This document shows positions 29,030 through 29,735 of a stretch of 64,000 nt of DNA, in pieces (within the stretch, counting starts at the first letter, position 1; each line of letters opens with the position of its first letter). The notes below the pieces were generated by a model. That model was not told the DNA's origin, did no database searches, and saw nothing but the letters and a program-made list of their open reading frames with translations. A program made the translations under genes and the position numbers. Source of the DNA: an uncultured Treponema sp. (GTDB lineage Bacteria; Spirochaetota; Spirochaetia; Treponematales; Treponemataceae); contig CAMPAL010000001.1 of NCBI GenBank assembly GCA_946631855.1, positions 1 to 64,000 of the forward strand, given 5' to 3'.

Positions 29030-29735
29030 AAAAAGCAAGTTTCTTCTTATCAAAAAGAAACTTTTTTTATTTCTAAAAGTTTCTCACCCCCGTTGACCCT
29101 GGAGGTTTTTAGAAACCGGGAACATTCAATATTTTCAATGTGGGTTTCCTTCGCCATTAGCAAAGGAGGTTTTACTTAACACTCAAACCTGGATGATCCC
29201 TCTCCTGCTGATTGCGTCATCAGTGCGTTAACCTGGCCCGTTCGGCTTCGTCTGTGTTAAACTTATCCTATTTCTCCGGGTTCCGTTCCTTCTTCAGTTT
29301 TTTTCACCTCTGGAACTTCTGCAATCATTACCTTGGCGGTCTGGGTACAGTGGGTTCAGCTTTTTTCAGAATTCAAACTCTTTGGTTGGACTGCGGTTCT
29401 CTTCCTGGGCCACTTTAGCAAGCCATCTGCCTTTTTCAGTTATCTCTTTTGTCCAGGTTTCCAAGCCCTTCATACTCAGATAACTTCAACCTTTTCAGCC
29501 CTTCGGGTTTTAAGTGAGAAAAATTATAAATTTCTTTTTTTTCTTAAATTCTTTGGATTTTCTTTTAGGTGGGAAAAAACAAAGGATTTGGCTGTAACTT
29601 CAGATTAGCTAAAGCGACGTCGCTAAACCTCAGCTACAGCTAATCCTTTTTATAAAAATTAGTGGAATTTTATAAAAAACTCCTCTTGAAAATATTTAGT
29701 GGAAAAAATTTTCCTCATTTTCAAAAATCAATATA
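29030..29735 (-). ncRNA. Candidate large structured non-coding RNA (~0.6-0.7 kb)
   Basis: No plausible ORF, GC-richer than surroundings; minus-strand CTATATT near 29733 and CCACTAATTTT near 29660; many hairpins (e.g. GAAACC-c-ACATT-gaaaatattg-AATGT-tccc-GGTTTC, CTGAT-gacgca-ATCAG, CCTTTGC-taat-GGCGAAGG); terminator-like GTTTCTTTTT-gata-AGAAGAAAC then T-run. Confidence 0.65.

What the first reader, a model, noticed from the sequence alone, without database searches (positions are those of the whole stretch)
29030..29735. Large structured non-coding RNA candidate on the minus strand
About 0.7 kb without credible ORFs and visibly more GC-rich than the AT-rich surroundings. Minus-strand reading is purine-rich in loops and contains many clean hairpins: GAAACCcACATT…AATGTtcccGGTTTC, CTGATgacgcaATCAG, TTAACaCAGAC…CCAGGTTAA, CCTTTGCtaatGGCGAAGG. 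Near its 5' side is GGATTAGCTGTAGC…AGCGACGTCGCT…GATTAGCT-type pairing. It has upstream promoter-like motifs (CTATATT, CCACTAATTTT) and a terminator-like hairpin before the zinc-ribbon gene. Large ornate RNAs such as GOLLD and ROOL are known from phages, so this may be such a class or a new one.
Basis: partly seen in the sequence, partly recalled or inferred. Interest (0 to 1): 0.87.

Follow-up and report, generated by a model that had tools for sequence, protein, structure and literature searches.

The report
Orphan large phage RNA candidate
A large, previously undescribed bacteriophage carries a 0.6-kb stretch that codes for no protein, starts at one of the phage's own promoters and looks like a gene for a big folded RNA, but no relative could be found, so its fold and its job remain unproven.

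Summary
The stretch 29030-29735 (minus strand) lies on a large-phage contig binned into a bacterial genome. It is non-coding: all six frames score below every phage gene. Its core (29066-29523) holds the GC-richest 400-base window of the 64 kb. It begins at a phage promoter motif, ACTAATTTTTATAAAAAGG. That motif is shared with a related phage and stands before ATG reading frames at 12 of its 17 sites here. The 5' hairpin begins within a few bases of the expected RNA start and is strongly non-random (z=-5).
Other support is weaker. The core folds no better than shuffled sequence (z=-0.4), so 'many clean hairpins' holds for only three. The end-to-end closing helix has about a 10-14% chance origin. 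The terminator is AU-rich and may leak.
No Rfam family matches, including GOLLD, ROOL, OLE, raiA and introns. No homologue was found in phage records, plasmids, sampled relatives of the host, or the one related phage (57% portal identity), and exact-word scans of IMG/VR gave chance hits only. Covariation is untested.
Best reading: a late-transcribed, orphan, large phage RNA, like GOLLD/ROOL in kind but not a member. Main rival: a giant leader controlling the downstream zinc-ribbon gene.
In passing: a small covarying RNA motif in these phages' tRNA arrays.

The parts
29726..29736 (-). CTATATT box, a -10-like motif common upstream of genes in this phage; possible early start
   Evidence: CTATAWT is present upstream of 23 of 52 genes with an intergenic upstream region, against 4.6% of random 110-base pieces
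29680..29704 (-). CCACTAAATATTTTCAAGAGGAG, first ACTAAWT-type phage promoter copy; a near-identical copy precedes genes at 55027 and in relative G297 (37008)
29645..29665 (-). CCACTAATTTTTATAAAAAGG, second phage promoter copy; 18 bases are identical to the promoter of gene 46333; expected transcription start about 29650-29653 (inferred)
   Evidence: ACTAATT: 12 of 17 sites precede an ATG ORF within 10-60 nt, 20 of 29 in G297; control words 0-16% in the window
29581..29649 (-). 5' terminal hairpin (AAAGGAUU/AAUCCUUU, GCUGUAGCU/AGUUACAGC, UUAGC/GCUAA) with palindromic GACGUC in its loop, followed by a U-run
   Evidence: z=-5.07, 0 of 1000 shuffles; helix probabilities 0.83-0.98
29522..29580 (-). 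A-rich unstructured linker; contains TATAAT (29528) that could be a second start for the core
   Evidence: sequence, TATAAT list
29080..29521 (-). Core RNA domain closed by P1 (29521-29513 with 29088-29080, plus CCCG 29507-29504 with CGGG 29092-29089)
   Evidence: P1 pair probability 0.96 in the core, about 0.5 in the full RNA; end-to-end helix of this length in 10-14% of controls
29438..29485 (-). P2: AGUUAUCU/AGAUAACU
   Evidence: probability 0.81, z about -2
29094..29412 (-). P4 long-range helix UGGCCCaGGA/UCCaGGGUCA enclosing the 3' two thirds
   Evidence: probability about 0.5
29285..29350 (-). Adjacent hairpins P6 (CUGUA/UGCAG) and P7 (GUUCC/GGAAC)
   Evidence: probabilities 0.85-0.97; z=-2.1
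29175..29261 (-). P9 four-way junction closed by UUUAACAC/GUGUUAAG, containing CUGAU/AUCAG
   Evidence: z=-1.6 for the domain; CUGAU hairpin 1 of 200 shuffles
29147..29167 (-). P11 hairpin UCCUUUGCU/GGCGAAGGA
   Evidence: z=-4.2, probability 0.93
29030..29064 (-). AU-rich terminator-like hairpin AAGUUUCUUUUU/AAGAAGAAACUU followed by GCUUUUUU; it overlaps an alternative hairpin GAAACUUUU/AAAAAGUUUC that uses the 3' strand of P1
   Evidence: -9.9 against -8.7 kcal/mol; not flagged by the terminator scan
28708..29010 (-). Downstream zinc-ribbon ORF (100 aa) with a strong Shine-Dalgarno and no phage promoter motif of its own; probably reached by read-through
   Evidence: 94% identical protein P0121 in another metagenome; no CTATAWT or CTAAWT in 29010-29080 (sequence)
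29750..29790 (-). Intrinsic terminator of the upstream Hsp20 gene, separating it from the RNA

Best explanation
A stand-alone phage gene for a large structured non-coding RNA, about 0.6 kb, transcribed on the minus strand from the ACTAATT-type phage promoter at 29645-29665. The RNA starts almost directly with a stable 5' hairpin. An A-rich linker follows, then a 440-nt core closed by a long-range helix, and it ends at a leaky AU-rich terminator before a zinc-ribbon gene. It most likely acts as an RNA in trans during the productive (late) phase, as a scaffold or a self-assembling particle in the manner of GOLLD and ROOL. The palindromic GACGUC loop of the 5' hairpin is a candidate self-pairing site. 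Shown: non-coding status, the composition outlier, the conserved promoter motif and the 5' hairpin. Inferred: that the motif is a late promoter, the transcript ends, the core fold, self-assembly and any function.
For: Non-coding in all six frames and highest GC of the contig; GC-rich intergenic regions in AT-rich genomes are the usual mark of structured RNA (the DIMPL approach, PMC8723152). An ACTAATT promoter shared with relative G297 stands exactly at the 5' end and is not followed by an ORF. In G297 the same motif (ACTAATTTTATAAAAA, 40951) stands about 240 nt upstream of a tRNA array, so it probably also drives non-coding RNA there. 5' hairpin z=-5. Separate terminator of the upstream gene. 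P1 with probability 0.96 closes the core just before the terminator-like hairpin.
Against: Core folding energy is no better than shuffles. The P1-type closing helix is not rare by chance (10-14%). No homologue and therefore no covariation. No expression data. The relative G297 (partial, 140 kb) lacks it. Unlike most GOLLD/ROOL loci it is not beside a tRNA island: the only tRNA in the window is 25 kb away. The 5' hairpin plus U-run could itself terminate transcription.
Confidence: 0.5

Rival explanations
1. A giant cis-regulatory leader. The structured domain sits in the 5' UTR of the zinc-ribbon gene and controls read-through by switching between P1 plus the terminator (off) and an alternative hairpin that uses the P1 3' strand and the terminator 5' strand (on).
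For: The zinc-ribbon ORF has a strong Shine-Dalgarno and no promoter motif of its own. GAAACUU occurs both in the P1 3' strand and in the terminator 3' strand, so the two hairpins exclude each other with similar energies (-8.7 and -9.9 kcal/mol). AACCUCC elements in the core can pair with the Shine-Dalgarno (duplex -13.2 kcal/mol).
Against: About 630 nt is far larger than known riboswitch leaders (own knowledge). The alternative pairings are AU-rich and easily met by chance in this genome. The gene is a 100-aa protein with no Pfam or PHROGs match and no metabolic link.
Confidence: 0.22
2. A remnant of foreign or decayed DNA with no RNA function. Composition differs because of its origin, and the hairpins are incidental.
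For: Core folding is not better than shuffled sequence. There are no homologues, and the related phage lacks it.
Against: No residual coding signal or Pfam match in the two open plus-strand frames; no Rfam intron or mobile RNA. The 5' end coincides with a phage promoter and a z=-5 hairpin, and the ends coincide with terminator-like hairpins.
Confidence: 0.15
3. Two separate RNAs: a 70-nt hairpin sRNA ended by its own U-run (29581-29649), and a 480-nt core transcribed from the TATAAT at 29528.
For: The 5' hairpin is followed by UUUGUUUUUU. A perfect TATAAT lies 7-12 nt before P1.
Against: No -35-like hexamer at the right spacing for that TATAAT (sequence; one search lists no promoter there). 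TATAAT is frequent by chance in this AT-rich contig (103 copies).
Confidence: 0.08
4. A very divergent member of a known class (ROOL, GOLLD or similar) that the covariance models miss.
For: Phage-borne, size in the range of the 659-nt ROOL env-120, purine-rich, long-range closing helix; ROOL and GOLLD are known to vary widely in sequence (PMC12286853).
Against: No hit to E=10 with permissive filters over the 0.8-kb stretch; not near a tRNA island.
Confidence: 0.05

Closest known systems
ROOL RNA (Rumen-Originating, Ornate, Large)
   Same: Encoded by phages and prophages, about 600-660 nt, long-range closed domain, function unknown (PMC12286853)
   Different: No covariance-model match; not next to tRNA genes; conserved ROOL kissing loop B4 not identifiable
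GOLLD RNA
   Same: Large phage RNA; GOLLD expression rises during lysis, and the candidate has a promoter of the type that precedes the phage portal gene
   Different: No covariance-model match; shorter; no tRNA island; the GOLLD 3' domain is not recognisable
OLE and raiA RNAs
   Same: Large structured bacterial RNAs
   Different: No covariance-model match; different genomic setting
Transcription-attenuating riboswitch leaders
   Same: Closing helix followed by mutually exclusive hairpins and a terminator before an ORF
   Different: Several times larger than known aptamers (own knowledge); weak AU-rich terminator; no recognisable ligand link
Group I / group II introns
   Same: Size range and structured character
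   Different: No Rfam match, no split gene on either side, no intron-encoded protein inside

Membership tests
ROOL (Rfam) | Match to the family covariance model | tested here: not met
   No hit at gathering score or to E=10 with permissive filters on 28990-29790
ROOL (Rfam) | Often adjacent to a tRNA island (typical, not strictly required) | tested here: not met
   The only tRNA in the window is at 3692-3766
ROOL (Rfam) | Phage- or prophage-encoded RNA of about 600 nt | tested here: met
   Contig carries portal, DNA polymerase, clamp-loader and exonuclease genes; expected transcript 29036-29653
ROOL/GOLLD | Homo-oligomeric RNA particle | not testable with these tools
   Needs in vitro transcription and cryo-EM; only a palindromic loop (GACGUC) is seen
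GOLLD (Rfam) | Match to the family covariance model | tested here: not met
OLE / raiA (Rfam) | Match to the family covariance model | tested here: not met
Group I / II intron | Conserved catalytic core by covariance model, and flanking exons | tested here: not met
   No Rfam hit; flanked by complete genes and terminators
Conserved structured RNA (any) | Compensatory base changes among homologues | not tested
   No homologue reachable
Attenuator/riboswitch leader | Mutually exclusive terminator and antiterminator coupled to the domain | tested here: inconclusive
   Alternative hairpins of -9.9 and -8.7 kcal/mol overlap P1, but AU-rich and possibly fortuitous

The most novel reading that the evidence does not exclude
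A new class of large, late-expressed phage RNA, unrelated to GOLLD and ROOL, that folds into an elaborate domain and self-assembles, for example through its palindromic 5' hairpin loop, during infection.
Probability: 0.28. Interest if true: 0.8.

Novelty: new variant of a known kind. Interest (0 to 1): 0.45.

Why it matters
GOLLD and ROOL turned out to be RNA-only cages of unknown purpose (PMC12286853). An independent large RNA in an unrelated phage lineage, switched on by the phage's own promoter, would suggest that phages evolve such RNAs repeatedly, and would give a second system in which to ask what they are for. At present it is one orphan sequence, so the claim rests on context and not on covariation.

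Tried and rejected
Known families: Rfam on the whole window and on the region in permissive mode gave only chance hits, the best being U4 at 24 bits against a gathering score of 46, plus a weak CUGAUGA hammerhead-like hit at E=8.6. The default-filter scan missed a tRNA that scores 34.6 bits in a local scan, so the permissive local scan is the one to trust.

Homologues: blastn against INPHARED, plasmids, 297 genomes of the host order, the related phage contig G297 and two distant contigs, and L266/L268. Exact-word scans of IMG/VR with four 15-16-mers and of GTDB with one 17-mer were scored for flanking similarity: all chance. Single-sequence covariance models of two domains against phage contigs and about 1,000 genome searches gave no convincing hit; the two weak ones (L263, which looks like a tRNA gene, and L264) are chance.

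Neighbour proteins Hsp20 and the zinc ribbon found no IMG/VR locus. Portal relatives: one IMG/VR contig at 57%; none in GTDB genomes, INPHARED or the host order.

A tRNA-like reading of the P9 junction was tested with ARAGORN and Rfam and rejected.

Full report
What the window is. The window is contig C1 (66 kb) of a 217-contig bacterial genome bin, but its genes are those of a large phage: a portal-like protein, family A DNA polymerase, clamp-loader ATPase, 5'-3' exonuclease and HNH endonucleases. The portal-like identification rests on Pfam PF07230 annotated on its homologues P0003, P0115 and P0118. The lineage is poorly sampled. The portal has many metagenomic homologues, one IMG/VR contig at 57% identity (L010 = G297, 140 kb), and no match in INPHARED, in the GTDB contigs or in 397 genomes of the host order other than its own.

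The observation. Between the Hsp20 gene (ends 29800) and the zinc-ribbon ORF (ATG 29010) lie about 780 bases without credible coding signal. All six frames of 29025-29660 have negative codon log-odds, whereas the 31 reference genes score +0.11 or higher, mean +0.27; the two plus-strand ORFs also score negative and have no Pfam match. The core holds the GC-richest 400-base window of the contig (0.46 against a mean of 0.327) and is rich in A and G. This is the type of region used to find structured RNAs in AT-rich genomes (PMC8723152).

Transcription signals. Two motif classes precede genes in this phage: CTATAWT, upstream of 23 of 52 genes with an intergenic upstream region, and ACTAAWT. ACTAATT occurs 17 times in the window and 12 of these are followed by an ATG reading frame within 10-60 nt; in G297 it is 20 of 29; scrambled control words reach 0-16% in the window. 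The ACTAAWT form also stands directly before the portal gene (CTACTAAATAAAGCATG). The candidate has one CTATATT (29736) and two ACTAAWT copies (29704, 29665). The second, CTAATTTTTATAAAAAGG, is identical over 18 bases to the promoter of gene 46333. From its distance to start codons in nearly leaderless genes the RNA should start at about 29650-29653 (inference), which is where the 5' hairpin begins. That these are late promoters is inferred by analogy and from the portal gene.

Structure. The 5' hairpin (29581-29649) is far more stable than its shuffles (z=-5, 0 of 1000), and so is the hairpin at 29147-29167 (z=-4.2). The core is closed by P1 with pair probability 0.96 when folded alone and about 0.5 in the full RNA. 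P2, P6, P7 and P9 are plausible. The core as a whole is not more stable than dinucleotide shuffles (z=-0.36), nor is the entire RNA (z=-1.5), and an end-to-end helix as long as P1 occurs in 10-14% of controls. The secondary structure is therefore a working model. The 3' hairpin (29037-29063) is AU-rich, about -9.9 kcal/mol, and overlaps an alternative hairpin of -8.7 kcal/mol that would consume the 3' strand of P1. This is what keeps the leader model alive, together with the lack of a promoter motif in front of the zinc-ribbon ORF, which is a real gene (94% homologue).

Families and relatives. Nothing in Rfam matches, also not in the permissive local scan. Searches of phage records, plasmids, genomes, the related phage, exact-word scans of IMG/VR and GTDB, and single-sequence covariance models of two domains found only chance matches. 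Covariation could not be tested.

Verdict. The probability that this is a transcribed non-coding RNA gene or leader is about 0.8. A stand-alone large RNA that works in trans, like GOLLD and ROOL in kind, is favoured (0.5) over a giant attenuator leader (0.22) and non-functional DNA (0.15). Membership in GOLLD, ROOL, OLE, raiA or the intron families is not supported.

A side result that is stronger than the main one. The tRNA at 3692-3766 is followed by a small element that recurs five times in the tRNA arrays of G297 and four times in a third phage contig (L266). It reads stem1 ending in GC, then A(U/A)A, a 6-bp stem2, UCCUAUU, a loop, UAU-like bases, stem2', C, then GC and stem1'. All ten copies keep stem2; 96% of pair cells are standard; 8 of 11 pairs have changes on both sides; no shuffle or slide comes near. 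In two copies the loop holds a whole tRNA gene. It has no Rfam match.

Noticed in passing
window 3767-3829 (+); G297 contig at 42395, 43061, 95644, 98991, 99394 (+); L266 at 13284, 13140, 9919, 7851 (-): Small structured RNA motif in phage tRNA arrays: N2-6-GC-AUA-stem2(6 bp)-UCCUAUU...UAUA-stem2'-C-GC-N2-6'. Ten copies in three phages, 8 of 11 pairs with compensatory changes, 0 of 500 shuffles as good, no Rfam match. Two copies carry a whole tRNA gene in the loop.
   Followed up: partly
window 3692-3766 (+): The only tRNA of the window has an unreadable anticodon (ARAGORN gives two bases, 'tt'); a similar odd tRNA lies in G297 (L029 3331-3404). Rfam tRNA score 34.6 in the local scan, yet missed by the default-filter whole-window scan.
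   Followed up: no
whole window; G297: Phage promoter motif ACTAAWT, often 11-16 nt before the start codon (near-leaderless genes), shared by two phages with 57% portal identity: a candidate late promoter recognised by a phage factor.
   Followed up: partly
window 58124-61355: The family A DNA polymerase reading frame ends at 60238 and is followed by a homing-endonuclease-like ORF (60348-61355), suggesting a split or intervening-sequence-interrupted polymerase gene.
   Followed up: no
window 49253-50551 (-): TnpB/OrfB-like transposon nuclease gene (IS200/IS605 type, identified by eye) inside the phage; not examined for a guide RNA.
   Followed up: no
window 34937-36226 (-), 37805-39256 (-): A nicotinate/nicotinamide phosphoribosyltransferase-like protein and a nucleotidyltransferase-ligase-like protein lie close together: a probable phage NAD or RNA-repair module (identified by eye only).
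   Followed up: no
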